Shown in pieces: positions 5,273 to 49,111 of a DNA stretch of 64,000 nt. The stretch is from contig JAJEKV010000072.1 of assembly GCA_021234155.1 (NCBI GenBank), forward strand, positions 5,247,620-5,311,619. The letters are read 5' to 3'. The notes under the pieces are model-generated. The model searched no databases. It was not told where the DNA came from and worked only from the letters and a program-made list of their open reading frames with translations. Position 1 is the first letter of the stretch. Each line of letters starts with the position of its first letter. This DNA is from Isoetes taiwanensis (Eukaryota; Streptophyta; Lycopodiopsida; Isoetales; Isoetaceae). A program made the position numbers and the translations under genes.

Positions 5273-8200
5273 TTAAGAGAAGCACATGTCATGAGCAGCT
5301 GCAGCTATTAACTTCTCCAGACCATCAAAGTTATCTTCAGCATGTCCAGGACAAGAACCATCCTGTTTCAGTGCCATCAATACACTTGGCATAATTTCCT
5401 CCAGCCCAAATTCAGCTTCATTATTTGGCTGCTTCTTTCTTCTCTTGTATGTTTGCAATGGTTTTTCTATTGATGTGTTTCTTCTCTTGTATGTTTGTAA
5501 AGTCTTTTCTTCCTTTTGTTTAACAACCATGTCATCCTGGTCGATTAAATTGCTTTCAAGGACTTGAGCAGCTACAGAAGATGGAGGATCTTTGTAGAAG
5601 TCACTTTTGCAGGCTTCCACTGCCATAGAAGCTGGATCTCTCTCCTGATGAATACCATTTTTGCAGACTTCAGAAACTGAAGAAGACACATGACTGCATA
5701 CTTCAGCAGCTACAGAGGATACATCTCCGTCCTGGAGGTTAGTACCTAGAGAAGACACAATTCTTCCCTGAGGATTGATTGAGTCATCTTCAAGCATTTC
5801 AGCAGCTGGATAAAATGGGTTTGTGCTTTGTCTGTCAATGTTATCTGGATTATCTGCTTTGCCACTTAAAATCAAGCTAGCTGTTTCTGTTTGTGCAGGT
5901 AATATGTTATCTGGATTTTTGTGCATATCATCCTGTCCAGTTAGTAAATTAGATGTACTTCGATGCATACTATCTGGTTCTGCTTGTGCGGGTGATGACT
6001 TAGCTGCATCTGGCACCTTCACTAACTTCATTGTATTCTGAGATTGCCTTACAGGCTCCTCCAATAATTTCATTATACCCTGAGTTTGCCTTCCAGAACG
6101 TCTCCTTTTGGGAATAACAGTTGGTTCATTGTCGTTTCCAATCCCAAAAGATTCATGGTCATTAGATGCAAGCTTCCTGTCTTTAGTTAAAGTCACTCTC
6201 TTCCTTCCTTGCGTCACTGATTCCGTCCTCTTGGTTGTTTCTGTTGCATTAGATGTTGATGAGCTCCTTTCTTTCCTCTTGCGTGTGCTATCAACCGAGG
6301 AGACCATATTCACATCAGAGCCATTTCCCTCCCCTGTGGAAGAAGTTTTTCTGCCCTCCTTATCAAGTGATGCCTCAGTTTGAACTGTGAGAGAACCCAT
6401 CATTTGCATTTCACCCAAACAAGCAGCCCCTTTAGCCTCAATCATGCCATCTATGTTTTCTCTCATGATATGTGTTTGAACATCTGAATAAAAAAATCTT
6501 CTAATCTCCTGTTTCCAAATACAGCCATTGGAGCTTTTCCTGATTCGATCACTTTTCCTGGTTGGAACTTTTGCCCGACCTTCACCTATAAAGGGATTAC
6601 CCATGGTTATGTTGTTACATAGGCCCCTTTTAGTCTTAGATAACTTCTTTTTCCCAGTTACTATGCGGTGGGATAATTCTATTCGATCCAACACTTTTGG
6701 CTTAGAACCTGTACAATTAAATGTTAGAAAAAAATTAACAAAGATATTTAACTAAATAAGGTGTAAAGCATACTCGCCTATCTTTCCTGACTTCCCAGTT
6801 GAACTTTTCACTTGACTAAGTATCGAATTAGCTGAATGTCCCGATGTAAATGCCCACATACTGCGCATCCCAAATAAGAATGGAAACGACAGAAGAGCAC
6901 GCATCAAAGCAGCTATTTCATGATCAGAAAATCTCTTTTTTTCTTCTGCACTCAACTTCTGCAGACCATGCTTTGGCACTTTACCTTGACTTTCTAATGG
7001 CATCTCTATCTCAGAAGACGCTTCATCGGCTCGCAGTAAAGAACAATAGCTTGTAATAGCTCGCAATAAGCTTACAAACGTAAGAGTCTGCTGCTCTGCA
7101 TTTTCCAAGCCAGACAAGTGTGAAACTTCCAAGACATCACTCTCAGGCACATCAGTAATTATTTTGGGGTCCGTAAATCCAGGAGAGGGCATAGGTCCAG
7201 ATGCTAATATTTCACCGACAGAATAATCTTGGAAATCCCTGCATGGCACAGCTTTTTCCCTAGATTCTTTAATTCTCGCTCTCAAAGGAGGGACATCAAG
7301 CACATCTTCCGACAACTGCCTGTCTGATAATTTGTCTCCCTCTCTGCATGGCAGAAACAGTTTGTTAATAGAATTTTTATTTTGGCTTGATAGAGAATGC
7401 ACTTTCATAAACAACTTACAGAATGTCATCTTTTTGTTGTCTATTTTTCTGCTGTTTCCTGTTTATGTCTCCTGTTTTTCCCATTCTTTGTTTTTGAATT
7501 TTGGCATGAGCCTTCTCTAGGCCAGCTTTTTTGCGCCTTACTTTGGTTTCTTGTCTCGAGTCCTGAGGCACTTTGAAGTGTTCAGAAAAGTCAGTTAAAT
7601 CAAGACATGGACGTTCCTTTGAGCGTTTTGTAAAGTTGGGAAGCAGATGGCGCTTAATTTGCACATCCTTGTGAAAATCAGCCCGTCGCTCTGGGTAGAG
7701 CTGTTTCCACCTCCTAAAATTAAAAGCAAAATCTCATCTCAGATTAAACATCTGTAGGCAGACACTGTAAACAAATTGAAGGTACTAATGCTGCATAGTT
7801 GAACAACACATAGCTCTTTTAGATATGAAATTTAATGCTAGAGGCATTACATGCCCAAAAAATCCTTTAAAGATGCTAGGTGGATAATAAAGGACTCAAA
7901 AAGTCTGATTATACAGATAATAGGATATTATCCATAAAAGACAACAAAGGTCTAAACCCTACAAGAGAACCAACAAATACGGCCAAAGCAGATATGGAAC
8001 TTCCTGTTATGGTTTGTGCGGAAAAACAAAAATTTCTGAACAGAACTATTAACACAGATGAATGATCTCCTAGGCACCAGAAGAAAACAGCAAGGTGCAA
8101 AATATGGTTTGCAGGAACAATTGAATCTGCAGTTGACGACGAATGATTATTCTTATGAAAAGAATAGAAAAAGTGATATTTAAGAAGTTCTTGCAGGTGC

Positions 8201-11200
8201 GGGATGCCCACAAAGTGAGGTTGCTTCAGATTGGGTACTACAATTGGAGCTACTACATATCAGTTATAAGACAAAAGGAAAAATAAGTCGACAGTAGCCA
8301 ACAAACACAATCATTAATATTTAGTGAATATGCGATTGGCCATCATAAAACCATTGAAAAATGGCATAACAGACATTTGGCACTGAAGAAAATACCGCCA
8401 GCATTGGTTATCTGTACGAGGTGCGAGATCGGCAGCAACTGCAGCCCACCGATGTGGACCATGCTTCTTAACTGCCTCTTCTAAGTGCCTATCCTCCTCT
8501 TCAGTCCAGGCTTCATGTTTGATTTTTGGATCCAACACATTACGCCACCTAAAAAGCCAATATGAGTATGAGCTGTGACAGCAACGATGAAGACTTGTAC
8601 CTTTCTCGACACTGCATCTCAGTACGTCCTTGAACATGCTCTGCTATCCTCTTCCAACGCATCGCTCCATAAACAGACACAGCTAAAGTGAGCCGTTTAT
8701 CTTCCTCGACAGACCATCTTCCACGCCGTTGTCTTCCCAAGTGTTTACGGTTCCACCTATCATAAGTAATTGTATTTATTACTCTTAGTATTCTTGCATT
8801 TTGGCATTCCAAACCTAACATTTGCAACACCTTGCTGTGTTCAACATATCTATGTTTTTATGTTATATTTGTGTAATTCTGTACTTGGGGCCCAAATATG
8901 TGACTATTGGATTAATTATTTCTAAATGCAATAAAATCTCAAAACCAGTTACAACTGAGCCACAAGAAAGACAAAAGCACCTTAAGTGTCAAGAAGAGTA
9001 GTTATTTATGCTTCAAGAAAAAATTAAAAAAGCCGTAAAAGAGAGTTTAAAAAACAAAACGATAAAAGAGAGTTTCCCACCTGTCAGCACATTGTGAACC
9101 AGTACGTCCTTCAAGGCATGCTGCAATGGCTTGCCAATCCTTTAATCCACAAGATTTAACTGCCAAGCATAGTTGCTCATCTTCCTCATGGCTCCATTCC
9201 CGATGCATAACACTTGCATTCAGGCTACGTTGATAGCGTATTAGACATTGAGAGGCAGTTCTATTTGTGTGAAGTTGATTGGCAATTGCCTCCCAGTCAC
9301 AAAAATTATGCCGCTTGGCTATTTGCAGCAGGTTTATATCTTCTGATTTGGACCATGGACCATGATTTATCAAAGGATCTTCATGATGTAACCATCTAGG
9401 TAACATAAAACAATAACAGAATAAGTACAGCAATATACCAGAAACAAATTATGGCCAAATTAAATGAGTTGGGGAGACTTTCGTTTTACAGCAGCCCCCC
9501 CCCCCAAAAAAAAAAACCAAAATGTAACACAAATCCAGACCATACAATCTGAAAATCAAGGTCTAAGATGCATGCCACATCACGTGGGGGCTGCAAAACA
9601 AAAACTAGCTATGAATTGTCAAGAAGCCAAATCGAAGATGCGAGAAAGCTAAAGAATAAGAAAATAATAAATAATTGATCTTTGTAGGACCATAACCAGC
9701 ATTTTCTAGGTTGAGATGGCATCATGGAGGCAGAAAACGGGAGATTACAGAAGGGACAAATACCTATACAGAATAAGGATCAGCAAAAAACATTTTGTAC
9801 AGAATAAGGATTAGCAGAAAACATTTGGAAGGTATGAGTTCCTCATAAATTTGCTTACCGAGATTGGCAATCGGAGGCTGATCGTCCTAATACATAGATG
9901 CGTGCTACATCCTCCCAATCCACTACATTTAGGAAATTTTTTATGTCTTCCGGTGTTAGTACCCGCTCCTTAATCTCCTGCATTTCATCCTCCAGAGATA
10001 AGTTCTGATCAATTCCTTCCCTGTGATATCCAGAAATATAATAGCATGTCATGCATTGATACATTATGAACACTGCAACATTTTTTTTGAAAAGGAGAAT
10101 TCAGTACATGGCAGTTTTCATAGCCTCTCGGAGTAAATGGTGCTGTATCTGCTGCTTCACTCCATTAGAAAGCTCCCGTCTTTCCTCCATTGACCAATTT
10201 CGAACAGAAAACACAGCAGGGTGAAGGGTCTGCAACCTTTTGTGGACTTCGATATCTTTGTTTTCTGGGGGTCCCCAATACTTTGACTGCAGAAGACAAT
10301 GATGCATTCAAACAAGGTGCTAGAACATGTTACATAATCTAAGTTAAATCAAAAGCAAAGAAAGTGAGGTTGAGTTCATCATATAGTGATTAGTAAAGTT
10401 CACCTGAGTGAATTTCCAGCGTTTTGGTTTTGTCTTCAATGGTAGTATTAGCTTTATGGAAGGACTAAGCCGATCTGAGATTATACCCATATCACGCTTA
10501 CAGTATTTTTCAAACCCTAGGATGGTCTTCATTCGTCTCTGCAGCTCTTTATTTTCCTTCTGCTTGACCTCCAGCTTGCTCAACAGGCCTCTAAGTGCTA
10601 CTTGACATTTTCTATTTTTCTTAAGAGCATTCTCAAGCACCTCCATAGATCCTGTGGATCCGCATGTTCCATCTGGCAAAAATGTCTGATCAAGTTGCAG
10701 ATCATCCAAGCTATCAAAATGATGACATGGGAACTTTGGGCTATCAACTTCATTGCCTGCCTCATTCTGAGAACTCTCCAAAAATGCAGTTGCTGTTCCT
10801 GACTCATTATGTAATGGTTCATCGTGTAATAATTCAGTATAAAGTGGTTCATTGGTGTCCTTGGAAAACTCTCTCAGCTCAAAGGCAGGTCCTACCTGTA
10901 GCCTCTTAAAAGTGTCTGTCATAAAACACAGAACAGTCAGAAAAAATAATCAAGTGTCGGATGGTCAAAAGAAACATCATGAGAACTAACTTTGAATCTT
11001 AAATATTACATTTGCATTGTTCAAAATTCAGATTTACCTGGAAATGCAGGATCAATTAACCCATTAGCAGGGTCAGAATTCTTTGAATTGGTCTCGTTTG
11101 AAGCAAAATGAAGTCCATAATGACTTTTAACTCTTTGCAGCAGCTGCTCATCATCATCATCATCATCATCATCGTCATCATCATCCCAATTATCTTCATA

Positions 11201-11524
11201 TTCAATTTCTTGGTTATTATCATATTTCTCTGATGTCTTAAAACCTGCTGGCTTGCCCTTGACAGATGCACCCCACTTTTGCTGCACCGAAAGCAGCAGA
11301 CTATCATCGTCCTCAAAATCATCATTGTCATAATTACCATGAACTGATTTCTCAATGCCATTTCCTGCTTTCCCGTCCCCAATTTGGATATCAAAGTCCT
11401 CATTTGCAGAGTGAACAGGCAAGCAAGCTTTTTTTAAGGCGAGAATCTGGTCCTGAAAACCTTCTCCAAAAGACTTCTCAAGTTCATCCTCGTCAAAATC
11501 CTCCTCTACTGAAGGTTCTACCAT
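5273..11524 (-). CDS. SNAP190/SNAPC4-like 4.5-repeat MYB protein
   Basis: Ten exons join in frame: 11524-11038, 10915-10404, 10286-10108, 10020-9859, 9395-9081, 8756-8601, 8548-8396, 7713-7420, 7343-6778 and 6708-5273 (1419 aa). SNAPC4 is the large subunit of the snRNA-activating complex, which binds the proximal sequence element of snRNA promoters in the nucleus; plant relatives are the 4R-MYB proteins. The N-terminus is acidic, with 12 consecutive Asp at residues 114-125. A coiled-coil-like segment (LLSKLEVKQKENKELQRR) follows near 290-310. A half MYB repeat (about 413-448) is followed by four full repeats: GPWSKSED (about 459), REWSHEED, GRWSVEED and EAWTEEED, ending near 663 at RWKQLYPE. 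This is the SNAP190 Rh-Ra-Rb-Rc-Rd layout, and the length is near the human protein. The rest is Ser/Lys-rich with two LQTYKRR motifs near the C-terminus. Exon 8 may start at 7713 or 7710. The exon 9-10 intron uses a GC donor. The start ATG opens the first long frame. The gene looks intact. Confidence 0.9.
11149..11186. repeat. CAT/CGT trinucleotide repeat in exon 1
   Basis: On the minus strand this run of GAT/GAC codons encodes the twelve-Asp stretch of the SNAPC4-like protein. It is a coding microsatellite and likely to vary in length between individuals. Confidence 0.85.
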
Positions 11525-12111
11525 GAAAATTAAAATATAGGCCCCTTGGAATGAATTCTTTTAAAAAATGGCTCTCTTGCCTGCGGGAGGAAGGAAAAAA
11601 TGCCCGTGTTCTTTCTCGCATTCATTCAATTATGTTGCTCAAAGAACTTCTCAACGGCCAAATTGTCCGATTTTTCAAAGCTTCCCACAAGCCAGACGGC
11701 TAAGAAGTGTCTAAGAGTGGCAGTCTGGCCAGAGAGCAAGAGGTCCGTCAGAAGGAGCGGGTGTCGAGAAAATAATTAGGGCTCCAACGAGAGAAAGAGG
11801 TCTGCTGCTTCGACATAGGGCCTGTGGGATAAAAGGGTTTTTTTTCTTAACAATGGACGACTCTAACTTTTTTAATAATGGACTTACTTGGTGCAACCCA
11901 TAGCTTGATCAGATAGGGTTGAGACCCAAGCCCCTATATTGCAAGGGTTTTTTTTTTTTTGAAGAACGAAAGCCAAAAAGTTTATTAATCAGAGAAAAAG
12001 TACAAAATTTACATGTCTCATCTAACTGTCTCATCTATATTGCAAGGGTTGATTAATCATGCAAGCTGTAATGTGTAGTTATTTGACAATACATTTATTA
12101 CTATTAAGGTT
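11525..12111. other. 5' flank of the SNAPC4-like gene
   Basis: No second gene was recognised. The segment upstream of the start codon (plus coordinates rising from 11525) presumably holds the promoter, but no clear TATA box was found. A T-run at about 11948-11961 is followed by a sequence that could be the reversed tail of a retroposed copy; this was not resolved. Confidence 0.4.
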
Positions 12112-12532: not shown

Positions 12533-13186
12533 GGTTTTTCCCTCGAAAACCTTTCGGAGCGGTAATCATGGTATGTAATAGGTGCAATATTCTATTATTG
12601 TTGAATTCCACGGACCTTTTGGTCTCTACTGATGCTAAAATTCAATTTTCTTCTATTTTAGACTTTTGTTTCATCGGGTTTGTAGTTTTGTGACCTTAAC
12701 TGGAATTCATCCATCTCCAGTGTTGATTTCAGCTCTATGATAGGCCAAATTGATTCTCTTCCATCATGATCAAGATTTGAATCTGCAGGCGTTTACAGTG
12801 ATTTGATTTAATTAATCACGTCAATCTAGTCCATGGGCGAAAACTATAACAACATTTATATATGACAATAGCCATGAGCTTTGTGCTTCAAAACTATCTA
12901 TAAAATTGTTCAATTCCAAAGTTTCAATTCTCCATTTCCACCAAGTCTTCAAAAAGCTGCCAAGTTGGTCTCTTGATATATCTACTATCTCTGATATAGA
13001 TCTAGTATTGATCCCATACTCATCCTTTATATGCAATGATGTTGTGCAATATAGAAACGCCTAATTTTTATCTTCGACCACTCCCATACAATAGCAACAG
13101 CAGAAGCAGAGGTCTCTTGGCACCTTTTAACTTCTGCCATCTCAATCTCTAGCTTATGTGAGCTTAATGCTAGTTGCGCTACCAGC
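12533..13186. other. Intergenic with a LINE 3'-end-like motif
   Basis: At 12533-12562 the sequence GGTTTTTCCCTCGAAAACC followed by TTTCGGAGCGG matches the motif in the 3' region of the LINE at about 62125-62157 and a copy at about 24413. The rest shows no gene. The last eight bases (CTACCAGC, 13179-13186) are the left copy of the hAT target duplication. Confidence 0.55.
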
Positions 13187-13560
13187 CAGGGATAGGTTCT
13201 ATACGTACAAAATTAAAATTCCTGACGTATAAAGTAAAAAAATACGTATTTTTTAATAAAATACGTATTTAACGTATAAAAACCTCGCCGGCCGGGAAAA
13301 AAAAAAGACGCTGTAAAGCTTCGCGATAGCGTCGACGCCGAAAATTCTTCGCGACGCCGAAATACAAAGGATCGCGACGCCAAAAGTACAAATCGACTTT
13401 CGTCTGACGCGAAAAAAAAGTAAAAAAGCGTCTTGCGAAAATTTTTTCGCTGCATAAATCCGGACTATTTCGCGTCTGTAAACGAAGCGATGTTAAAGTC
13501 TCGCCATTTTTCACGTTTGACGCGAAAAAGTTTTCACGTCTGCTTGAATCAAGATTCAGC
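13187..13560. repeat. Left terminal and subterminal repeat array of the hAT element
   Basis: After the inverted repeat come AT-rich ACGTATAAA and AATACGTATT motifs (about 13220-13280), then a CG-rich stretch of CGCGACGCC, GACGCGAAAA (13406-13415, 13519-13528) and CGTCTG-type motifs in both orientations. The right end carries the same classes of motif. In hAT elements such arrays are usual transposase-binding sites; that role is inferred here. Confidence 0.7.
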
Positions 13561-13575
13561 GTCTGTGAAATTTTT

Positions 13576-13585
13576 TATATATATG
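13576..13585 (+). promoter_or_regulatory. TATA box for the plus-strand cargo unit
   Basis: TATATATATG lies just inside the left subterminal array. A transcript starting about 30 bp downstream would cross a good donor (ATG|GTGAGT, intron from 13784) and an acceptor (CTTGTAG, ending 14560), placing a 777-bp intron in the 5' untranslated region before the kinase-like start at 14619. The promoter and intron are inferred from consensus only. Confidence 0.5.
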
Positions 13586-14618
13586 CGGCGCGGGGATTTA
13601 GTTTTTGCGCCGCAAAGAAAGTATCTTCTGCGCCCAACCTTGCAATTTGCCACCCAAAACCAATTTTTTTTGTTTTCTTAGTTTTTAGGTTTTTTTCGGT
13701 TGTTTTTTTGATAGATAGGTCGTTTAGGTTCAAGCAGTTAGGCCCTCCTCGCTTTGCCCCCTAGCGTAAGGGGCGTAACGATGGTGAGTGCCTTGTTCTG
13801 TGGGCTGAGCTTGGCCTATTTTAGAAAAATAATAATAATAATAATAATTTAAAAGAAATAATAATTTAAGACTAAAATAAAAATAAAAGAAAAAGAAACC
13901 AAAAAAGAAAAGAAATTGGTTGCCTTCCCTTGAACGACAACCTTAGTTAAGTTTAGGGCTTTTTTAGGGTTGCGTGTTGTCAAGAGCATAGGCATGCCCC
14001 TTGCCTGGTATTGCCGCATTTATTTGCGCCATCTTGGGGTGGGTGGCAATCGCTTTGAAGCTTAAGGCAACTAGGGTCTCCCTTTATTAAGGGTATAACC
14101 CTCGCCTGACGCCGTTGTTGGCCTTGGTCACGCGATGTCGAAAGGTGTGCGTTGTACTCTTATTAAGGGTTAGAAGAATGTTTTATTAACTCATACCCTC
14201 GTTCCTGATGGTGTCGTTGATGAAAGTCCGACACTAATATAGGAACTGGCGTATGTTTTAATAAGCATTCGATTGGTCTCGTCTTTTGAAAAAAGCGTGA
14301 CCTGGGACAAGTGCAATGCATTTAAAACTTGCTAGACTTGCATTTTGGCAGTAGCTGGGCTAAGATCATAAATCGTGTTTTGGTCCTTTTATTTGTTACC
14401 CTATCCTTGGCCTTGCATATACATACTTATGAACTGATTAAAAAGTTAGGGTCTTAGCGTAGGAAGCGTAAAATTAGCGTTTTGTTTTGGTTAAAGTCAG
14501 TTGATTTACCCTCATGTGCTAAGCACTAAATTGAAAGTTTTATCTTTGCTTGACTTGTAGGTGTTGCTGTTGTCAGTTGCGTATTGTCGCGGAGTCGCAT
14601 TTTGCTAGAACAAGCAGT

Positions 14619-16356
14619 ATGACTTCAGAAGAGCGAACGGAAGTTAACTTGCAACCAAATGTGGCATTAGTGCCTCAGATAGAGCCGCAACCAGTAGAGG
14701 CATTGGCATCTCAAACACAGGCTACAGAGCTGCAACCTGAGTCATCTTCTGCAGCACTGCCGCGTAGAAAAAGAACCAGACCACAACAAGCATGGTCTAC
14801 TTTGAGACCAGATTTCATGAATTGGTTGTGTAATCGGCTGTGCAATGCCTCAGCTCAGGATTTGGAATTGATTACCAACAGCGAGGAAGGATGGCTAGAC
14901 TACCATGCAGGGCTGGTAAAAGATGCCGAGAGGGCTTTTAAGCTTCGAATGATGGAGCTAGAGCCTGAAAAGAGTGAGCAAGAGAGGTATACATGGATAG
15001 TGGGTAATATTAGTCGCACTACCGGCAATATGATCACAGAAGTTGCAAATTTGAGTAGTCATCGCTTGAGGCTAGAGCTAAAAGAAAAAGCCAGCACATG
15101 GAATGCGGCGTGGACTAACAGAAAATTGAAGAAAGAAGCCCATCAACCCCCCCATCTTGTTAAGAAAGTGTTGGCGCAAACCATAAAAGCCAAACGTCCT
15201 GGTGAGACAGATAGGGAGTGGGAAGCTCGTAGAAGAGCGGATGCCAAGACTACTTGGTTTGCCATGGTAGATTCATCACAAATAATAAATAGACAACGAA
15301 TTGGTTCTGGGTCATATGGCGCAGTGTATAAGTGCAATATTTTAGGGTCTAGTTTTATTAAGGATGAACCTTATTGTGTAAAACTTCAACATAATAATTT
15401 TCAGCCTAGTACAGAACCCAATAAGTTAGTGGAAGCTATGCTGAAGAACATGAGGGAGTCTGGAATGCAAGTTAGGCACGGGTGTATAATCTGTTTGCAT
15501 TGGTAGCACAACCGACCCTAGAAAGACAAGGCTTAATTTTCCCTTTTGGAATGGAGGTTCGTTGGCAACCTTCTTTACAAGTCATGGGTCTAATGCCTTT
15601 CAGAGCTTGCATTTAAGAAGTTGGGAGTCTGTCCCCCGAGTTGAGATCGGACTTGAGGTCGCTTGAACAGTAGCGAAAAAGAAAGAATTATTTGTTGCCT
15701 CTAGGGTTGGGGACTTAGCAATGTCATTACAGAGCGGCCTCAAAGCTCCATCAAGAAAGATATCTGCATATGGACTTGCATCCGGCAATATATTGCTCCA
15801 TTTTGATTATGGAAAGGAGAAGGGATGTATTGATCCTCGAGTCGCATACATTGGCATTTGTGATTGGGGTGAATCCAGGTTGATCCACGAGGCAAAGGAG
15901 GTAAAACGATGGCATTACAAGGGTATGGATGGCGAAGGTAAGAAAAGAATTGAGATGGAAAGGGCCAGGCATCCATATATGCATGATGATCTTTTTTTTG
16001 GTAGTGGCTCGAAGACAGTGCCTGCAAGGGTTGACTTTGATTTACACGGGGCAGCGTACATTGTCTACTACTTAGCTGACTTTGCTAGTAAGCACTCCTA
16101 TATGGAGTCAATAGGAAACTTGGAGCAGCAAGGCAAGCATCGGAGAATGTGTGACTATTTGAAACATTGCGTTGAGTCGCCAATGAGGGACAAAACACGA
16201 AAATTTGATATGGCCCAGCTACTTGACACAATGCGGAGCAGTTTTCATTGCTCTCCAATTCCGTGCACGAGGCCACAATTGGAATTAGATTGGATTCTTC
16301 AACTTGGCCAGGGTGGCGACGATGCATTAGACCAAGCTGGTCCTAGTCACGCCTAG
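14619..16356 (+). pseudogene. Protein-kinase-like cargo gene of the hAT element, frameshifted
   Basis: The first frame starts at the ATG at 14619 (an ORF open from 14550) and runs to 15506. It has a Gln/Glu-rich N-terminus, an RRKRTRPQQAW basic stretch, a charged helical region, then a glycine loop (RIGSGSYGAVYK) and YCVKLQ with the expected lysine. After about 15476 the reading continues in another frame (VYNLFALVAQPTLERQGLIF), then changes again. The C-lobe frame (15721-16356) has SGLKA, SGNILLHFDYG, the Mg-binding DWG in ICDWGESR (a DFG variant) and an F-helix-like DFDLHGAAYIVYYLAD. The catalytic loop (HMDLHP) is seen only in the +1 frame at about 15766-15783, so two nearby compensating indels mask it. 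At least four frame changes show that this copy is dead. It is a serine/threonine-kinase-like fold; the exact family was not recognised. It lies on the strand opposite to the transposase. Confidence 0.65.
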
Positions 16357-16621
16357 CGTGCATATTCTGCTATTCACAAGACCATAAACTTACATTCAAA
16401 CATTCTTGTATTACATAATATTCCAATTAAATTCAAAACACTTGTTTGATGCTATTTGAAAAAAATTATTGCCCATGTGTGTTTCTTTTCTTTTCGTGTG
16501 TTTTTTGTGTTATTTATTCTGTGCTTTTTTATATGTCGCAGCTAACGAAAATTATAAAGACAAGAAGTCAAAGCAGACCTATACAAGCCAGCGCAGCTAT
16601 AGATACGTCAGCACTATAATT

Positions 16622-17945
16622 ATGTCTCACGAACAGGACGAAGAATCGAATCCAATTCCACAAAATGTGGGTGCATCAGAGCAGCAGGATCAGCATGATT
16701 TTTCGGTCCCCTCTAATTTGAGAACCCCCTCTCCTTGGCAGCAAGGCATGGAGACCGAGCTTGAAATGTCAGCTGCTCGGCAAATGGAGAGAGCAGCAGC
16801 ACATGCAAGGGCGAATGAGTATCGCACGGCTGAGTTAAGAAGGTTGCGTGCGATGGATGAAGTTTCAAAGAGGGATAATTGCACCATCACAGAGGTGCAT
16901 AATGTAGCTGGCGAGGCAGGGCCTGGCTATTGTCCGCATGGAGCAGACTACGACGATGTAATTACAAATTTGGACAAGAATGAGTTTAAAAGAGAGTGGC
17001 CTAGTAGGCGGGGTAAGTATAAGGTTCACGAGTGCAAGATTGCTGTGGTTCGAGCAAAAGCAGTCGAGCGTCATGTCCAAGTGAAGGGACATTTACCCCA
17101 CAACGGTGAGTTTAGTAAGAGTTTTGCGCAGCAAGTATACTACGAGCTTGTGAAGGAAGTGCCCGTAAATTATGGGAGTAGAAAATGGAGGCAAGGAAGT
17201 GGTAGTGGCAGCACCAAGAGGGTCAAGCTATCGGAAGATAGCGAGAGTGGGTCACATGGTGAGCCTGTCACCATTACATACCTTGTTCTTGGCCATCCAA
17301 CTTTTGGAGGTGGCGAGGGGGTAGCCTACTGAGCCGTGAATGACCTTGTGGATATTCGAGCCCAATTGGAGAATGAGAGAAGTCATAACCTAACACTTTC
17401 TGAAGAGAATATTCGCTTGAAGGACCGTGCCGATGGGTTTGACAAGATGGCCGCTGAATTAGAGGATGCTAAATGGCAACTAGCGGCATTAAACAGAGAG
17501 GCAACGGTCCTTAGGGAAAACAACGATCACCTGCGCCATTTGACCAGATCGTTAGACTCTGACCCTTTTAGGGTGACTTGAGCGCCGATATCCTATCTCC
17601 CTCGCGGTATTTGTACGAGAGTCGGTGGGAAGAGCTAAAGGTTGTTGATTACGGACATTGCCAATTGTGTGGTGACAACGACACCGCAGTGGGCTGGTAC
17701 ACTCTAGGGTGTGGGCATCGTATGCACATGCGATGTCTTCTTGATTGGATGTTGCAAAGCCGCTTCGTCCAACAATGCAAGGCGGATGGATTTTTCCCGA
17801 AATTTACAATATGCCATATTTAATATGCAAGGTCGCATGCCGGCGTTGCCACATTTGGACCGCCGCGGGAGGGATGGGCGAGATGCACACTTTTCAATCC
17901 TTTCGCGAAAGCAGGAATTGTGGAGGGGGTGGAGGAGCCGCGTGA
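16622..17945 (+). pseudogene. Cargo gene: unknown domain + coiled coil + RING-H2 finger, broken
   Basis: The chosen start is the ATG at 16622 (MSHEQDEE), preceded by an acceptor-like TATGTCGCAG at 16531-16540. The first frame ends at a TGA at 17330-17332. It has a charged region with an Ala/Arg-rich helix, then an unrecognised domain (HGADYDDVITNLDKNEFK to KSFAQQVYYELVKEV) and a basic KRVKLSE patch. The same frame reopens directly after the TGA and encodes a coiled coil (LENERSHNLTLSEENIRLKD) to 17581. A frame change leads into 17578-17823: CQLC, then CGHRMHMRC, then after another frame change CRRC at about 17835-17846. The spacing C-x2-C, C-x-H-x2-H-x2-C, C-x2-C is the RING-H2 pattern of ubiquitin E3 ligases. 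Whether this was one protein or two is unclear. E3 activity is inferred from the finger only. It lies directly downstream of the kinase-like gene. Confidence 0.55.
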
Positions 17946-19428
17946 AGGAGAGATGATGCCGGACATTAACCCGTTCTTACCACCACCTCCGGGGCGCGGG
18001 GTGATTATATTGACCCAAATGACCAATGAAAATGAGATATTACATTTTTAGACAAAGAACATTTTGACCTGTATCATTTTGTGAATGGATAATAAGGTAT
18101 AATGACGGGTATAATGACGTAATTTCAAACAAGGTATAATGACGTTATCAAAGCATCGAGTAAAAGCATGGAGTAAAAGCATCGAGACTTCCAACTCGCC
18201 ACCCCTCGGCTTAGTCTCTTTTCGTTTTTACGTTTGGTGTATCTAATTTGCCCCCTAGGATGACATCGCTCACTCAGGTGGCGAATTAGATACGTCAAGC
18301 AGGAAACTCGAAAAGGGAGTAAGCCAACAGCGCAACCCTCTTGAATAATTGTCAGGTCACCAGGCTTTATATTCTCCATGGCAAACAATATAGACTTCTC
18401 GAAATTCTTGTTACCTCCTTTAGAAGGAGCGAGCTTTGCTCTGACTCTCTTTTGCGTGTCTCTGTGTCAATGTATCTTAGATACTTTGCTAGGTTATATT
18501 ACACAAAGGCGCCGCCAAAATGGGGGGCCGGAGCAGAAATCGCTCGTTCTAGAGGAGGTTACAAGGTTTTTGAGTACTCTATTTTTATTGTGGCCACGGA
18601 GGATATAAGGCCTAGTGGTTGCTTGCGATTCTGTGGGTTCATTAGATGTTAGTGATTGATGAGTTCAAGCTTCGAGACTTCCCCGTTTTTCTTTCCCCTG
18701 CCTCTTTGGGCAATGTAGCTTAGTTTACACGCTAAGTTCCATTGTCCATAAGAGGCGGGTGAAAGCAAAGACTGGGACGTCTCGATGCTTGGACTCAGGT
18801 CTTCGGGTTAATTGGATGTTAGTGATTGATGAGTTCAAGCATCGAGACTTCCCAATCTTTCTTTCCCGTCCTCTTTGGGCAATGTAGCTTAGTTTACATG
18901 CTAAGTTCCAACATGTGACCCTCTTGAATGGTTGTCAACTCACCAGGCTTGATATTGTTCGCTGCAAACAATATAGACTTCTCGAAATTCTTTTACCTCC
19001 TCTAGAAAGAGCGGGCTTTGCTCTGACTCTCTTGTGTAGTCTCTCTGTGTCAATGTAGCTTAGTCACTTTGCTAGGTTATATTACACAAAGGAGGCTCAC
19101 AATGGGGTCGGAGCAAAAATGGATCGTTCTAGAGGTTGAACTTTGCTATGGCGTCGGAGGTGAGAGCGCACTCTAATTTCAAGCCAAAGTGGTGCACGGG
19201 TGTTGTCCATCTATATAGCGGTTGTTAGGCACCAAATCATGGAACATCCTAACTCACACTATTGATGGAGAACCTTGAGCATCACTATGACTTCAAATTA
19301 GAGTCTGCGTCCCCTTTGGCAAGGTGGTGGATTGTAGGTAACAAGGTTTTTGAGTACTCTATTTTTATTGTGGCGGATGATATCAGCCTAGTGGTTGCTT
19401 GCGATTACGTGGTTGCCGACGCCGATGT
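17946..19428. repeat. Non-coding middle of the hAT element with internal direct duplications
   Basis: A block of about 240 bp (about 18322-18555) recurs about 590 bp later (about 18917-19133). Shared pieces include CTCGAAATTCTT, GCTTTGCTCTGACTCTCTT and TGCTAGGTTATATTACACA followed by AAGG. A second pair (about 18646-18745 and 18825-18910) shares TTAGTGATTGATGAGTTCAA and GGGCAATGTAGCTTAGTTTA. The phrase ACAAGGTTTTTGAGTACTCT occurs near 18561 and 19340. No gene was recognised. Confidence 0.65.
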
Positions 19429-19593
19429 ACGCCAAATCGGCATTTGGATGCCATCAGGACCTATAATTTGTACCTCCATTCCTTTGGGTGGCACATGCCA
19501 TGCAAATCCACTTGGGTATTCAGAGCATGTGCCACCCAGAGGAATAGAGTACAGATTATAGGTCCTGATAGCATTCAAAACCCAATTTGGCAT
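19429..19593. repeat. Long imperfect inverted repeat (about 69-bp arms)
   Basis: The left arm (about 19429-19498, GCCAAATCGG... to GGGTGGCACATGC) and the right arm (about 19525-19593) are complementary, with a loop of about 26 bases. Both arms hold the core AGGACCTATAAT. Identity is roughly 85-90% with one indel, by eye. A transcript would form a long hairpin. It could be a foldback insertion or a small-RNA source inside the hAT element. Confidence 0.8.
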
Positions 19594-19978
19594 CTGCGGG
19601 TTATTCCCGACTTGGGTGCCGGTACCTTGTGAACCTTTCCGATGGATCAGATTAGTCCCAGCTGGTCCGAGGCTGTTTGGCTCCTTTGCATGCGTAGATT
19701 ACTTCTCATCAGCAAGATTCTGGCGCATGCGAAGAGGCAAGCAACAACGGAAGTCAAGACGGGTCTGATCCGAGGAAGGTTTTCAGGGCACTGCGGTTAC
19801 ACATGAATGAAACATGAAAGAAACATAGAAAGAACTATCATACATGAACGAAACATAACCAAAAAATCATAACCAAAAACTTCTTTTTTATTGATAGTGC
19901 CAGGGACGGTTACAATAGTATGAAAATCCTCAAGACTAATTACAACAGACTGAAGATACTCATCACATCATTTTTCTA

Positions 19979-22345
19979 GACAGCGCCTTCTTCATCAGTT
20001 TCATCATTCGCAGTTCCATCCTCTTCTACCTGGGGACCTAGGTTCAACCTCCGATGACCCTTTCCCTTAGTGAAACGTCCTCGAGACGTGTTTCTTCTAG
20101 CCCGTTCTCTGTTTGTCAAGGTAAAGCGCGAAGGTGAGTCCGCTGGATTACGTAGGCCGATCAAGTCATCAACCATTGCTTTCGAACACGGCCTTTACGT
20201 ATCGGGACTCCTCGGTATCCTCGCTGTCGGTTGATCCGTTTGAGAATATGGCTTGGTCTATATCATCTTCGTCATCAACAAAGTGGGTACGTTGAATGTC
20301 TTCATCAACATGGCTTGCAGCATTTATTGCAAGCATCTCGTCCTCACTGTCTTCGAAGTTGTCCTCTTCCACTTCGGAATCTGCATCCATGAAAGGAAAC
20401 TGTAGCTTATCGATTGCGGATGTACCAGCTTTATTACGATTCAATAGCCGCCCGGTTTTGAGAAGTTGTATACAAGTTTATGCGCCTTCTTATGTAGCAA
20501 GCGATTGCGGGTGACGTTGTGTATGTACTTATAGGCACTCCAATTCCTCTCACTTGCACTATTGGAAGATACCAAAGAGAGGATAGTCATTGCAATTGCC
20601 TGCAAGGTATCAGTAACTTGCCCATTTTGGTTCCTTCTTATGACTCTCCAGTGCGTCGTGAAGCTCTTCATCTGCCCACCTTCCACTCAGGTTCTGGTAT
20701 TCAGTTAACTCGGCAATGAAAAGCTTGTAGTCCGAGCTGTTGGGATAGAACATTTTTGCAACCTTCTTCAACGAGCCCATCACTTCTTTATCTGTATGCT
20801 GGTCCATATCGTGGTTGTGTGGGTCTAAGGCATGCGCGGCGCCATGAATATCATTGTATGACTTCTTCCATCGTTCATTGAAGTTTCTAAGTAGTGCTGC
20901 GCGCTTAGCATTGTCAAATGGCGCATTGGGGCCATCACGTTCTAGGAAGGATTGAATGGAGTGCCAACACCTCCAGACCTTTCCAGTGCTTGCCTTCGAA
21001 GAATCAAGGGTTTTGATGGCATGACAAACAGGTTGCATGCACCTCACAACATTTTTTACACCTTTCCAAAATGTCTCCCGCCCAAGCATTTCTCGAAGGG
21101 CAGCAGCTTGTTGTCGGTGTTTGGCAGCATTTTTCCCTTTCTGCCTCCTTTCCCAATCAAAAAACTCTGTATGATTAAAGGTTGAGATAATCCAATCACG
21201 ACACTTCAGCACTCTTTCAAGACAGATGTAATTGGAACCAAACCGAGTTTGCCCAGGATTCATGAGTGCTAGGCTCTTCTGACGCAATGACTTGTAAATG
21301 GCATAAATTGCCGGCTTCTTTGTGATGAATTTTACAAACCGACGCGCTTTCTGAATGGGATCTTTGAACCACTTGTGCTGTGAGAACCAGTCCTTCAGCA
21401 ATAGGTTCAGGCAATGGCATTGGCAACTAGTAGCATGCAACCCTGGAAATTCAGACTCCAATAATTCACCCGCTAGCTTGCAATTAGACGCGTTATCCAT
21501 TACAACTTGAAATATTCTCTTCGGTCCAAAACTTTCTATCCACGGCCTTTGTTTTTACGAAAAATCCAATCTCCGGTCACTTGGTGGGTTTTGGTTTCTA
21601 CGGTTTTCAAAATACTTCACCCCACGGATACACGATCATGAAATTTATAAGATGGTCCTTGTTTACATTGCTCCAACCATCGATCACTAATGAAGCTGGC
21701 CGCTTGATCCACCGCGACACAACTTCATTTCCACCCTCTCAACCATTTTTCCATGTATTTCATCAACCATTTTATTGTTGGCATGCTTGTATGAAGGCAA
21801 TCTAAAAGCCGGTCCTGCTTTAGCAACTTCTTGGAAGGCTTCTTTCATTGCTTTGTGCTCCAAAATATGTGGAGACAACCCAGCATATAAAAAGCCTCTA
21901 CAACCTTCGTTCGCGTCTTCTTCAATTGCTCGATGTTAAGCAATGATCAACCCTCTGTTGCTTAAATGTCTTTCCACTATTTCAATTGTCTCTATCATTC
22001 TCTGTTCTCCGTGCTTATACCTATTGACCCTAGTCCACCCTCGATTGGTATCTTTGTCCCAACAGTGGTGGTATAGTTATCTTCGTCTGCTCTGCCCCAA
22101 TGCTCTTGAGTATTAAGTAACTTCGTCTTTTCTCATATTATTCTTCGTTTTGCGTATCCCATCCGGTCGAGACAATCTCTCGATGGCATCCTTTCGCAAG
22201 TCGGCGATCACGGTACAAGTTGCGACACCGACGTCTCGTTCACGTAAGATGTGAGCTCGAATTCTTGTTGCGCAAACCATTTACCGATGAGTATCCACAA
22301 AACACACATTCCCACTCATTTAAGCCAAACTCTTTCACAAACTCC
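19979..22345 (-). pseudogene. hAT transposase (BED zinc finger, DUF659-like, hAT dimerisation), frameshifted
   Basis: Read on the minus strand. A BED finger lies at about 22315-22180: WECVFCGYSSVNGLRN, then after a frame change RIRAHILRERDVGVATC. Then come AGPAFRLPSYKHANNK (about 21820-21760) and, in another frame, SLVIDGWSNVNKDHLINFM, the DUF659-like DGW block. The long frame 21500-20610 gives QVVMDNASNCKLAGELL, SCQCHCLNLLLKD and TRFGSNYICLERVL. After another frame change near 20640, SSNSASERNWSAYKYIHNV and RNRLLHKKAHKLVYN form the hAT C-terminal dimerisation motif. An acidic tail (20444-20169) and a basic Arg-rich end (to 19979) follow. There are at least five frame changes or stops. The transposase would cut and reinsert the element; this copy cannot encode it. 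Confidence 0.85.
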
Positions 22346-22865
22346 CATTACGGGCCTCTTTTCCGACCACCCAACTCCACTACCGCGACCCTTACGTGCG
22401 AGTTGCGGTCCCCGTGTTCCCACGCCACGGGCACACGCCGATCCTCGCACCTCTAGAGGTAGATGCATGACCACGCGCACGCACCTCCAGGTGGTAGATG
22501 CATGACCGATAGCCACCATTGCTCGGACCCGGTGACAATGTCTCTTAATCGACTCCTTGATTACACGAACTAAAGGAAGGCGTATATATGCAAAGGAGCA
22601 AGCTCACAATGCATATGTTACGTCGGCGTTAAATCTTGCGAAGAATCAAGGGGGTTGAGACGGGACCCTATAGGATATTCTATGGAAGCGGATCACGAAC
22701 CCAAATTTTGGAAACCACTGGGACGAAAGTAAACTCACGTTCCAAATCCAACGTCGAGGGCTCGTGAAAAAACGACACCTCAAAGGCAAACCGTTTCCCA
22801 AGGAGTATTTTGACTCAACTTTGGCGGTCAACGTTCGAGGTGAATTCTAGGGCTAATCACGTTTT

Positions 22866-22876
22866 CTTATATATAC
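22866..22876 (-). promoter_or_regulatory. TATA box for the minus-strand transposase unit
   Basis: The minus strand reads GTATATATAAG. It lies just inside the right subterminal array and about 530 bp upstream of the first transposase codons, mirroring the TATA box inside the left end. Inferred from consensus and position. Confidence 0.45.
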
Positions 22877-22889
22877 TATTAATAAATTA

Positions 22890-23323
22890 CCACAAAACAA
22901 AGCCAAGCGGTTGGCGCAAAGATTTTTTGCTTAATAAATGGGGCAAAAAAGTTAAAATTTTCGCGACGCCGAAAACAACTAAATTAACGTGACGCGAAAA
23001 GACCCTTTCGCGTCGCGAAATCTTTAGGAACGCGTGCGAAGTTCAAATTTTTTTTCATACGCGAAAACAACTAAAACCGCATGTCTGCGAAAAATGTTCG
23101 CGTCTGCTGATGGCGTTGTTTTTCGACGTCTGTGGTTTTAACCAGCACGTCGCCGAAAAATTTTCGGCAGACGCGATTTAGTTGTTTTCGCGTACGCGAA
23201 AATCTTCCGATGCCGGAATTGTTTTTTGCCATATTTTTTGCATTTTATACGGCAAATTTGTGCCGTATCATACAATTCATACATATTCCGTATAAAACGT
23301 ACAGCGTATTGAACCTATCCCTG
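22890..23323. repeat. Right terminal and subterminal repeat array of the hAT element
   Basis: GACGCGAAAA (22991-23000), TACGCGAAAA (23058-23067 and 23193-23202), TTTTCGCG, CGTCTG and CGACGCCGAAAA motifs occur in both orientations, as at the left end. The last 100 bp are rich in CGTATA/TATACG and end in the inverted repeat. Confidence 0.7.
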
Positions 23324-23331
23324 CTACCAGC

Positions 23332-46500: not shown

Positions 46501-48116
46501 CATTGCTGCTTCAAACCTTAGAACTATTTGTAGTCGCACGCATGGTAGTCAGATGATGGATCTTTTTCTTATTCTGCAATGCAATGCTATGACAGTATGA
46601 GGCAATATAAGAAGTTTCAAAGAACCAAAATGGAAATTGTCTCTATATTGACCATAACTCGGTGAGCATGAAACATCGTCATTTACTCAAACCTTTCTCA
46701 AATGGAGGATCATCTCCATAGTAAAAACAATTTAAGCTTTCAAAATGTATCAGCATACAAAAGCAAAACAAATCTGAAAAAGTAAGGGAAAAGTATTACC
46801 AGTGCAGATTAGATGATTTGCTAAAGCGGAAAAACAAGAATATTTTCAAAAGCATCAAATACACCATGAATTCTATGAGCTGCCTAGGATAACATAATTC
46901 ATGCTCTTCTTCCCTAATAAAGAATCTAAAGAATCATCATCATCACTGAATAATCTAAGTACAAACCATGCAAGAATTGGCTGAGTAATATGTCTGAAAA
47001 CCTGATAGCATTTGTAAAAATAATGATGCATTTGCAAAAATATATTGCATATGTTGCAATCTCCACTGGCACTCCTAGTCCATCATACTCATCTCGTTAC
47101 CTGAAACAGAGCCAAACCCAGCTGTAGGGAACTCAATTTCCTATTTATACACACTCATTGAAAAAGAAAAATCTCATATACTGTAACTCTGGCATTGCAT
47201 GCAGAACTTACCATTAATGTTTTTTGAATCTTGTAAAGCATCATATGTTTCGATTTTCAACTGCAAAATATCAGGCAAACCAAACAAATGATGGATGCTG
47301 CACTTTTAGTTATGAGAAAGAGAATAAGAAAACTCGCTCTTTTGTTCATAAACGTACCTTTCTGGTCTGGTAGCAAACGGATATTATGCTGATGAGGTGC
47401 TGCTATTATAAGCAGATCGATGCTGGATCTAAGCTTCATGAATGAGGAAGAGAAAGTGCAGTTTGCTTTTATATTTGAATTTGAAGGTAATATTTCTGAC
47501 CCAGAAAAAAGCGTGAGCACGACACGTGTATTTTTTTAATAGAAAAACATTTCTTTCTTCCTTCACGTTTCTTGCTCTGCAAGCAATCTTGGCTTTCATA
47601 CTCCCACACTCGCGGCATCCTGTTCCACCATAGCCAGACGCTCCAAGCATCTCCAAGGAGGGCCGCTTCGCCTGCTTCAAATCCGCTGTTTCCCAGAGCA
47701 AAATTTTACATTCTATTTTCATGAAGCAAATTAGCTCATTTTCCTGAAACTATTCATTCGTCTATGAAGGCGTAGAACAATGAAGGGTCTGGGCAGAGCC
47801 AAACTAGATGCTGATGCTTAGAGGTCCTATACGCCTTAACTAGCCCGCCGGTTTGGATATACATTTGAGCTTTCTACAAGCAAATGCCAATTACAAAAAT
47901 ATTGTTCTTGCAAAAGTGCTGCCATATTGAAGGTCGTCAGTGCGCCAAACAACACAAATACCTCGAATACCTCAAGTATGAACCAAGAATCGATCCTGCT
48001 TAGGTTAGCGCCTTTCCTTTCTGCTTTCTTTTCTTTATTATTCGAACCAAATCCAGACACATTTTCTTCCACCCTTAATAGTTATGCAAACTTGCTCTTA
48101 TTTTACAACATCTTAT
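43600..48116. other. Intergenic, no gene recognised
   Basis: Mostly AT-rich. At about 44385-44480 a 70-bp unit with TGATTATGGCCTGATGTT occurs twice, diverged. At 44534-44580 GTGAATCCTCAGGATTCGCT-like units are tandem. Minus-strand frames at 44987-45187, 47257-47520 and 47429-47722 show no domain and no convincing splice model. A gene fragment cannot be excluded. Confidence 0.4.
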
Positions 48117-49111
48117 TCTTGGGCAGTGTCATACTCCTTGGAGACTTCAATGCGCGCACCGGGGTAGAACAACCCATGAGATTTGATCCCTTGACTGATG
48201 ATATATTGCAGTTGTGTCCTGCAGAAGGAGCTTGGCCACGGACATCAGATGACAATCAGGTCACGCGCTATGGTCGACAGTTGCTTTTGCTCTGCAGTAT
48301 CTTTGACCAGATAATCTGCAATGGACTGGCACAGTGGCCTTCCACCCGCAAGAGCACTTGTAGGCAGGAAAACCAGGGGGGCGGATCTAGTGTGGTGGAC
48401 TATGTGTTGGTGCCTGAGCAGGATATGCATGTCATCAAGCACTTTCAGGTGGGAACAACTAATCGGGATGAAGAGATCGACTCAGACCACTTACCACTTT
48501 ACTTGAAGTTGGCTTGGTAGGTTGTGCGAACCCCCGGTGCAACAACTCCTCACATGCCTCAGCTGCGATTGGATTACGAACATGCAGGGGCTTATGCCCA
48601 GATGCTTATAGATGACCTGGCAGAAATTTTGCAATATCCTACACTAGAGCAACAGACAGGCCGGCTGACTGATGTGTTTAGGACTGCGGCAGAGAGTTGC
48701 TTTGCGATAAGCCGCCCGCGACAGACCTCCAAGAAAACCTTCCCACGTAATCAATGGTTTGATGCAGAGTGCAAGGAACACAAACGCTGGCTCCTCCAAG
48801 TCACAGACCCTGCTTTACGCCCGCATGCAATCAGACAGTACCGCATCTTAAAGCTAAGAAAGCCAGGTACATTGCAGCACATCAAAGGGAAATGTTTTAC
48901 CTCCTGGAACGTCACCCCAGGACCTTCTGGCGAAGGGTTCTTAGAAAGCCAGTACAGCCCACAGGGAATATCACTCCCGAGCAGTGGAGGCAATACTTGC
49001 AACAGCTATACGACCCTCAGGGTGCACATGCAGCATTACCCTTGCAAGAAGGCCAAGTGCTGGAAATCACAGATTCGGACGTGGAACAAGGCTTACAACG
49101 TCTTGCCAATG
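48117..49111 (+). mobile_element. LINE, 5' part: endonuclease and linker, decayed
   Basis: The frame around 48129-48519 encodes an exonuclease-endonuclease-phosphatase fold: VILLGDFNARTG, then LLLLCSIFDQIICNGL, GGGSSVVDYVLVPE and DSDHLPLYLKLAW. These are the GDFN, SVIDYV and SDHxP motifs of LINE endonucleases, which nick the target for primed reverse transcription. A TAG stop follows at W, then the linker continues in the same frame and shifts near 48850 into RHPRTFWRRVLRKP and ITPEQWRQYLQQLYDP. The sequence before about 48117 is not endonuclease-like, so the element is probably 5'-truncated. The LINE stops abruptly at the LTR at 49112 and resumes at 60182. Confidence 0.82.

What the first reader, a model, noticed from the sequence alone, without database searches (positions are those of the whole stretch)
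13187..23323. Cargo-bearing hAT transposon with kinase-like and RING-H2 genes
Seen: inverted ends CAGGGATAGGTTC(T/A)ATACG, the 8-bp duplication CTACCAGC, BED/DUF659/hAT transposase sequence on the minus strand, and a kinase-like gene plus a coiled-coil/RING-H2 gene on the plus strand, all inside one 10.1-kb element. Known: hAT elements normally encode only a transposase of about 600-800 aa. Inference: this may be a lineage of large hAT elements that keeps signalling or ubiquitin-ligase genes, either as captured host genes or as accessory functions acting on host silencing or on transposition. Decay of all genes to a similar degree suggests that they arrived together.
Basis: partly seen in the sequence, partly recalled or inferred. 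Interest (0 to 1): 0.88.

Follow-up and report, generated by a model that had tools for sequence, protein, structure and literature searches.

The report
Transposon carrying kinase and RING genes
A family of large cut-and-paste transposons in a quillwort genome carries, besides its transposase, a kinase-like gene and a RING-H2 (ubiquitin-ligase-like) gene that recur together in the same order and bear marks of selection.

Summary
Confirmed and extended. The 10,137-bp element is a hAT transposon: 19-bp inverted ends, 8-bp duplication, minus-strand transposase (DUF659, Dimer_Tnp_hAT), plus-strand kinase-like and RING-H2 genes. The host assembly fits Isoetes taiwanensis. The ends occur 2,952 times (control 33). 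The cargo is not a one-off: of 78 sampled end-bearing loci (67 looked into), 8 carry all three genes. Of 77 scored kinase loci in the genome, 41 have a RING match just downstream on the same strand; one other arrangement was seen. Stop-free frames exist for both genes. Against a divergent kinase-RING pair both genes show strong third-codon-position excess (p below 1e-12): long purifying selection. The apparent decay is partly doubtful, since differences between copies cluster at CpG, as nanopore errors in methylated repeats would. Open: whether divergent pairs also lie in hAT elements or are a host gene pair that was captured, and what the proteins do. Best reading: a hAT lineage with a conserved two-gene accessory module. 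Cargo-bearing hATs are known; no kinase-plus-RING case was found in the papers searched.

The parts
13179..13186 (.). left copy of the 8-bp target-site duplication CTACCAGC
13187..13205 (+). left terminal inverted repeat (T-type: ...TTCTATACG)
13206..14600 (+). left subterminal non-coding region with many CpG; about the first 118 bp are shared with shorter copies that lack the genes
14619..16356 (+). kinase-like gene (566 aa as read through; P-loop GSGSYGAVYK, VK, HMDLHP, DWG), frame broken in this copy
16622..17823 (+). coiled-coil-like/RING-H2 gene (about 400 aa), frame broken in this copy
18051..19900 (.). middle region with direct and inverted repeats, present in other full copies with indels
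20000..22400 (-). hAT transposase gene (DUF659, Dimer_Tnp_hAT), frame broken in this copy
22400..23304 (-). right subterminal non-coding region
23305..23323 (-). right terminal inverted repeat (A-type: ...TTCAATACG)
23324..23331 (.). right copy of the target-site duplication CTACCAGC

Best explanation
This is one copy of a family of hAT transposons about 10 kb long in a lycophyte (assembly fitting Isoetes taiwanensis). Shown: the family has defined ends, 8-bp duplications, a transposase gene on one strand and, convergent to it, a kinase-like gene followed by a RING-H2 gene. Shown: the two cargo genes recur together, and both have been under purifying selection over the span that separates two subfamilies of the pair. 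Inferred: they are working genes of the element, not passengers. The most likely role is that the kinase (the catalytic motifs that I looked for are present) and the RING protein (best PDB matches, weak, are the E3 ligases AMFR and synoviolin) modify host proteins, or the transposase, so that the element escapes silencing or controls its own movement; the transposase moves the whole unit by hAT cut-and-paste and, as inferred from shared ends, also the many shorter derivatives.
For: Ends and duplications: 1,477 + 1,475 matches, reversed control 19 + 14; 17 distinct end pairs, window included: 12 with 8 of 8 duplication bases, 2 with 7, 2 with 6, 1 with 3; all 17 have one T-type and one A-type end; C404 is a further 8 of 8. 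All three genes: window plus C390, C404, C22, C25, C204, C513, C419, C734. Order: 41 of 77 kinase loci have a RING match 3' of it on the same strand, gaps 239-1,238 nt, median 324; 1 other arrangement within 8 kb (on the capped lists). Stop-free frames: RING C999, 88% identical, 463 aa open; kinase C1010, 90% identical, 574 aa open. Selection: position 1/2/3 differences against a divergent pair, kinase 0.261/0.222/0.471 (p 9e-13), RING 0.314/0.235/0.577 (p 7e-14); RING C999 against C1034 pN 0.244, pS 0.843 over 397 codons; among close copies at codons away from CpG (kappa 2) kinase dN/dS 0.45 (p 0.003), transposase 0.53 (p 0.016). RING similarity to AMFR (E 7.6e-4). No homologue of either cargo protein at E 1e-3 in a search of 5.8 billion proteins.
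Against: No functional evidence at all. RING selection among close copies is not significant (0.55-0.75, p 0.054-0.34). The kinase signal weakens with kappa (0.50, p 0.011 at kappa 3), its own estimated kappa (4.7) was not run, and one wrong frame of the kinase is also below 1 (0.49, p 0.014 at kappa 1). With all sites, shared changes show no significant codon-position bias in kinase or RING (p 0.22 and 0.08). One copy with both ends, C177, carries the transposase alone. The divergent pair at C801 has no recognisable transposase in 6.2 kb beyond the RING gene and none of these ends in 12.9 kb. Of the 8 other three-gene copies, both ends were seen in 3 (C390, C404, C419); in the other 5 only one end lay in the stretches taken. 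The transposase search of the whole genome did not complete, so linkage of cargo to transposase is known only for sampled loci. Pfam's kinase score is below the curated cut-off.
Confidence: 0.62

Rival explanations
1. Old transduplication: a host kinase-RING gene pair (or multicopy host family, the 57-66% identical loci) was captured once by a hAT element and amplified as a passenger; the selection seen against the divergent pair acted in the host, not in the element.
For: Divergent pairs with the same order exist, with a stop-free RING frame at C1034 and stop-free kinase frames at C13 and C1075 (their other gene has one listed stop each). The C801 pair has no transposase or known ends in the stretch read. 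Capture by hAT elements is known: histone H3 in a fungus (PMC6710886), grapevine Hatvine-6 (PMC2528002). RING selection among close copies is not significant.
Against: Selection is also seen among close copies of the element family at codons away from CpG for the kinase. The divergent RING genes are themselves multicopy (stop-free over at least 350 residues at 9 places at 58-61% identity). No homologue was found in the protein search. Long kinase matches run without a clear break from 90% to 58% identity, as in an evolving element family.
Confidence: 0.25
2. Dead relic: the family is decayed and the cargo is long non-functional; open frames are chance survivors.
For: The window copy and the copies read in full have stops and frameshifts in the genes; even the majority sequence of 10 (kinase), 10 (RING) and 14 (transposase) rows has broken frames.
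Against: Differences and indels concentrate within 2 bp of CpG, with 35-52% transversions at the CpG itself, which points to sequencing error in a nanopore assembly (PMC8566536); away from CpG and indels, copies differ by medians of 2.3-3.4%. Stop-free frames over nearly the whole length exist.
Confidence: 0.08
3. The kinase and RING genes serve the host (functions in signalling or immunity) and the element is only their vehicle.
For: Both protein types commonly act in plant signalling (general knowledge, no call).
Against: Copies are numerous and often broken, and no homologue was found in the protein search.
Confidence: 0.05

Closest known systems
hAT transposon of Pseudocercospora fijiensis carrying histone H3 (PMC6710886, passages)
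   Same: hAT with 20-bp ends, 8-bp duplication, DUF659, about 9.5 kb, multicopy cargo
   Different: fungus; one captured housekeeping gene, copies inactivated by RIP; here two unrelated cargo genes that recur together, with marks of selection, in a lycophyte
Grapevine Hatvine-6 hAT elements (PMC2528002, passages)
   Same: plant hAT with foreign sequence between its ends
   Different: there the extra sequence is often unique or shared by few elements and resembles genic and non-genic host DNA; here the same two genes recur in many copies
Plant MULEs with ULP protease domains (PMC2528002, passages)
   Same: DNA transposons that carry a gene of a ubiquitin-like pathway
   Different: other superfamily; a protease, not a RING protein; no kinase
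Arabidopsis VANDAL elements with VANC anti-silencing proteins (PMC10398659, PMC5735166; abstract starts only)
   Same: plant DNA transposon with an accessory gene; model for a counter-silencing role
   Different: MULE superfamily (recalled); VANC is a sequence-specific anti-silencing protein, not a kinase or RING protein

Membership tests
hAT superfamily | transposase with DUF659 and hAT C-terminal dimerisation domain | tested here: met
   (both above the Pfam cut-offs in the read-through)
hAT superfamily | 8-bp target-site duplication | tested here: met
   perfect in 12 of 17 distinct end pairs, window included, and in C404
hAT superfamily | short terminal inverted repeats shared by the family | tested here: met
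   2,952 matches against 33 control matches
hAT superfamily | BED zinc finger at the transposase N-terminus (common, not universal; recalled) | tested here: inconclusive
   no Pfam BED call
eukaryotic protein kinase-like | protein kinase domain by profile | tested here: inconclusive
   Pkinase E 4.9e-7, 29.9 bits, cut-off 31.7; pieces of other copies also hit APH weakly
eukaryotic protein kinase-like | Gly loop, VAIK-type Lys, HxD..N and DxG motifs (motifs recalled) | tested here: met
   GSGSYGAVYK, VK, HMDLHPGN, DWG in copies, DWG in place of DFG
RING-H2 finger protein | C3H2C3 zinc ligands (recalled) | tested here: inconclusive
   C-x2-C and C-x-H-x2-H-x2-C clear, the last Cys pair differs between copies; zf-C3HC4 above cut-off in C734 and C999
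RING-H2 finger protein | E3 ubiquitin ligase activity | not testable with these tools
   weak sequence similarity to AMFR, E 7.6e-4
one-off gene capture (transduplication) | cargo confined to one or few copies, with a close host parent gene | tested here: not met
   many copies; no parent in the protein search, but an old host origin is not excluded

The most novel reading that the evidence does not exclude
A kinase and a RING-type E3 ligase form a dedicated, long-selected accessory module of a lycophyte hAT lineage that acts on host silencing or on transposase stability: a phosphorylation-plus-ubiquitin system encoded by a cut-and-paste transposon, with at least two subfamilies of the pair that diverged to about 60% protein identity.
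Probability: 0.4. Interest if true: 0.85.

Novelty: new variant of a known kind. Interest (0 to 1): 0.74.

Why it matters
hAT elements are usually described as carrying only a transposase. A lineage that keeps two signalling/ubiquitin-type genes under selection would be a plant case in which a transposon may act on host proteins directly, and would make the question 'do DNA transposons carry counter-defence genes beyond DNA-binding anti-silencers?' testable in a genome with many copies. It also warns that long-read assemblies of methylated repeats may make living element genes look like pseudogenes.

Tried and rejected
Structure prediction of a kinase C-terminal piece and of the RING protein's N-terminal part gave mean pLDDT 38.6 and 35.0 and was not used. 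A PDB sequence search with the kinase C-terminal piece gave only 3 matches with E 0.52-0.93. Region identities were not used as evidence of selection: coding regions are more alike than the subterminal regions, but the middle region is as alike as the genes in some pairs (window-C390 0.915, window-C801 0.918, C404-C22 0.908). Codon-position tests that included CpG sites were flat or weak for the cargo and are reported as such. Decay by homopolymer error was checked: 26 of 360 short gap events lay in runs of 4 or more (14 of 118, 3 of 92, 9 of 150; four full copies), about the 5-7% of bases in such runs; one event can be counted in several copies. The idea that C525 and C257 are cargo-free elements was dropped: their homology to the window stops at element positions 7096 and about 5957, with small pieces beyond in C257, and no left end was found. 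The idea that C801's flanking kinase is another copy of the same subfamily was dropped after the joined flanks gave no nucleotide match at E 1e-10 and the wider stretch showed a divergent pair. C22's right end was not found: the next 1 kb (L068) gave no listed match.

Rows dropped or doubled: the plus-strand setting left C525 and L008 out of the transposase alignment of 18 rows, and C188 and C25 each gave two rows that overlap slightly; C999 (L097) came later and is not in the alignments. Columns near CpG or indels were masked and part. Read-throughs used for searches join frames of broken genes and hold X at some joins; one residue at the kinase join (an extra S in HPSGN) comes from that splice.
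Full report
What is in the window. The ends at 13187-13205 and 23305-23323 are exact inverted matches, with 0.01 expected by chance, flanked by the 8-bp duplication CTACCAGC. Between them lie a broken kinase-like gene (14619-16356, +), a broken RING-H2 gene (16622-17823, +) and a broken hAT transposase gene (about 20000-22400, -).

Host. The assembly holding the window has 1,658,258,908 bases in 1,110 contigs. The Isoetes taiwanensis paper gives 1658.30 Mb in 204 scaffolds and 909 unplaced contigs (1,113 in all), assembled from nanopore reads and polished with racon and pilon (PMC8566536, passages).

Family. The 19-bp end pattern with at most 2 mismatches matches 1,477 + 1,475 times against 19 + 14 for the reversed control. 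Only the first 100 places, all exact, were listed. By hand these form 22 facing pairs and 56 single ends, 78 loci. I looked into 67: all 56 singles (8 over about 10 kb; 48 by a 1-kb probe 1.5-2.5 kb inside the end) and 11 of the 22 pairs; the other 11 pairs, each under 0.8 kb apart by the listing, were not fetched. Fifteen loci carry coding sequence: 8 have kinase, RING and transposase (C390, C404, C22, C25, C204, C513, C419, C734), 4 have one cargo gene and transposase (C801 and C425 with RING; C23 and C188 with part of the kinase), 3 have transposase only (C177 with both ends; C525 and C257 cut short on the cargo side). A probe can miss copies, so 15 is a lower bound. Both ends were seen in C390, C404 and C419; in the other five three-gene copies only one. 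The copies first compared at length (window, C390, C404, C22) are collinear at about 85-87% nucleotide identity. Of the 12 non-carrier loci in which both ends were seen, 11 are 0.5-2.5 kb long; one, C452 (L012), is 9.3 kb with perfect duplication but no match to the three genes.

Cargo genome-wide. The RING protein search gave 112 matches in 104 merged loci (104 of 1,205 candidates scored), the kinase search 86 matches in 77 merged loci (77 of 1,614 scored); both are lower bounds (merging). Of the 77 kinase loci, 41 have a RING match 3' of the kinase on the same strand, 239-1,238 nt away, median 324; one other arrangement was found within 8 kb. RING matches without stops over at least 350 residues: 14, five at 78-88% identity and nine at 58-61% (counted by hand). 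Stop-free kinase frames include C1010 (90%, residues 1-545), C1081:5869677 (74%), C941:1562073 (71%), C908:16253100 (66%), C1075 (64%) and C13 (62%). Many other matches have stops.

A divergent pair. The C801 element sits inside a different kinase gene (duplication GCCAGGTA on both sides). That gene is 50-67% identical in protein, and 3' of it lies a RING gene 56-65% identical, same order and strand. No transposase match was found in the 6.2 kb read beyond the RING gene, and none of these ends with up to 5 mismatches in the 12.9 kb read. Against it, the window's kinase differs by codon position 128/490, 109/491, 231/490 (p 9e-13) and its RING gene 111/354, 83/353, 205/355 (p 7e-14). The open RING frame of C999 against that of C1034: 397 codons, 63.5% protein identity, pN 0.244, pS 0.843, synonymous sites saturated. 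Both genes were therefore under purifying selection over that span; whether in elements or in a host gene pair is not settled.

Selection among close copies. With all sites, shared changes by codon position are 64/57/99 in the transposase (p 0.001), but not significantly biased in kinase (50/50/66, p 0.22) or RING (46/46/66, p 0.08); private changes are flat. After removing codons near CpG or indels, dN/dS at kappa 1, 2, 3 is kinase 0.37, 0.45, 0.50 (p 0.0003, 0.003, 0.011), RING 0.55, 0.67, 0.75 (p 0.054, 0.19, 0.34), transposase 0.43, 0.53, 0.58 (p 0.002, 0.016, 0.043). The true frame has the lowest ratio of the three frames in each gene, but one wrong frame of the kinase also reached 0.49, p 0.014 at kappa 1. 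Copies are not independent, so p values are optimistic.

CpG clustering. In the kinase alignment (11 rows) substitutions are 12.7% and indel bases 5.8% within 2 bp of a CpG seen in any copy, and 0.8-2.1% and 1.6-2.0% at 6 bp or more. RING: 13.0% and 6.5% within 2 bp, 1.6-3.3% and 0.8-1.3% at 6-20 bp, but 5.3% substitutions in the 61 columns beyond 20 bp. Transposase: 12.1% and 4.8%, then 1.4-1.7% and 1.3-1.7% at 6-20 bp; 26 columns lie beyond. Using only CpG seen at least 3 times the contrast is weaker (kinase 12.6% against 1.9-3.7%; RING 13.9% against 4.0-4.7%; transposase 12.9% against 2.3-3.2%). At the CpG itself 35-52% of changes are transversions, and the neighbouring bases are affected as well; deamination would give transitions at the CpG and no indels. 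I read this as nanopore miscalls at methylated CpG in repeats that short reads could not polish; reads were not available to prove it, and methylation was not measured. Away from CpG and indels, pairwise divergence has medians of 2.4% (kinase), 3.4% (RING) and 2.3% (transposase); that filter also selects conserved columns.

Proteins. The kinase shows a glycine loop, a VK lysine, HMDLHPGN and DWG; for the stretch before the glycine loop Pfam gave only a sub-threshold TFIIF_beta match. The RING protein has a coiled-coil-like stretch (by eye and weak Pfam matches) and a RING whose first six ligands are clear; its best PDB matches are AMFR and synoviolin (E 7.6e-4 to 0.011). Neither has a homologue at E 1e-3 or better in the search of 5.8 billion proteins (a word-based search that misses distant relatives). 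The transposase has one close relative, 58% identical, from an unnamed ENA contig of 3.6 kb, too short to show cargo; four more distant ones were listed.

Precedent. hAT elements with a captured histone H3 gene (PMC6710886, passages; also Pyrenophora tritici-repentis, PMC3538342, listing only) and plant hATs with host sequence (PMC2528002, passages) are in print. ULP protease genes in plant MULEs (PMC2528002) and VANC anti-silencing proteins in VANDALs (PMC10398659 and PMC5735166, abstract starts in the listing) are the nearest functional models. Full-text searches listed, by title and abstract start, no paper on a hAT element with a kinase and RING pair; a search for Isoetes, hAT and transposase together found 0 papers. 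Only openly licensed papers are held.

Verdict. A real, multicopy, cargo-bearing hAT family with a recurrent kinase-RING pair that bears marks of selection. The mechanism is inferred. Whether the pair is an element module or an old capture of a host pair is the main open question.

Noticed in passing
49224-49591 and 59710-60075: direct repeats about 10.5 kb apart (98-100% identical over about 190 bp, 77% over a further 86) with gag-pol-like ORFs between by eye (weak aspartyl protease match E 0.012): probably the LTRs of a retrotransposon
   Followed up: no
47840-49174: endonuclease-like ORF of LINE type by eye; no Pfam match for the second piece
   Followed up: no
5273-11560: minus-strand host-type gene with long open ORFs, Myb/SNAPc4-like by eye only (one piece had no Pfam match); contrasts with the broken frames of the repeats
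   Followed up: no
18330-19600: direct and inverted repeats in the middle of the element, differently arranged among copies
   Followed up: partly
L012 123-9397: 9.3-kb element with the same ends and perfect 8-bp duplication but no transposase, kinase or RING match: a large non-autonomous member
   Followed up: partly
G000 C919:1183718-1358835: three kinase-RING pairs within 175 kb of one contig
   Followed up: no
L015 96-4382: 4.3-kb element with both ends and transposase only; its transposase shows clear third-position excess against the other copies (0.072/0.065/0.154), so a cargo-free form may be functional
   Followed up: partly
L098: in the divergent pair at C1034 the kinase frame is split near the DWG motif, perhaps by an intron
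   Followed up: no
L094 and L095: about 1.7 kb of T/C-rich low-complexity sequence between kinase and RING genes of the divergent C801 pair
   Followed up: no
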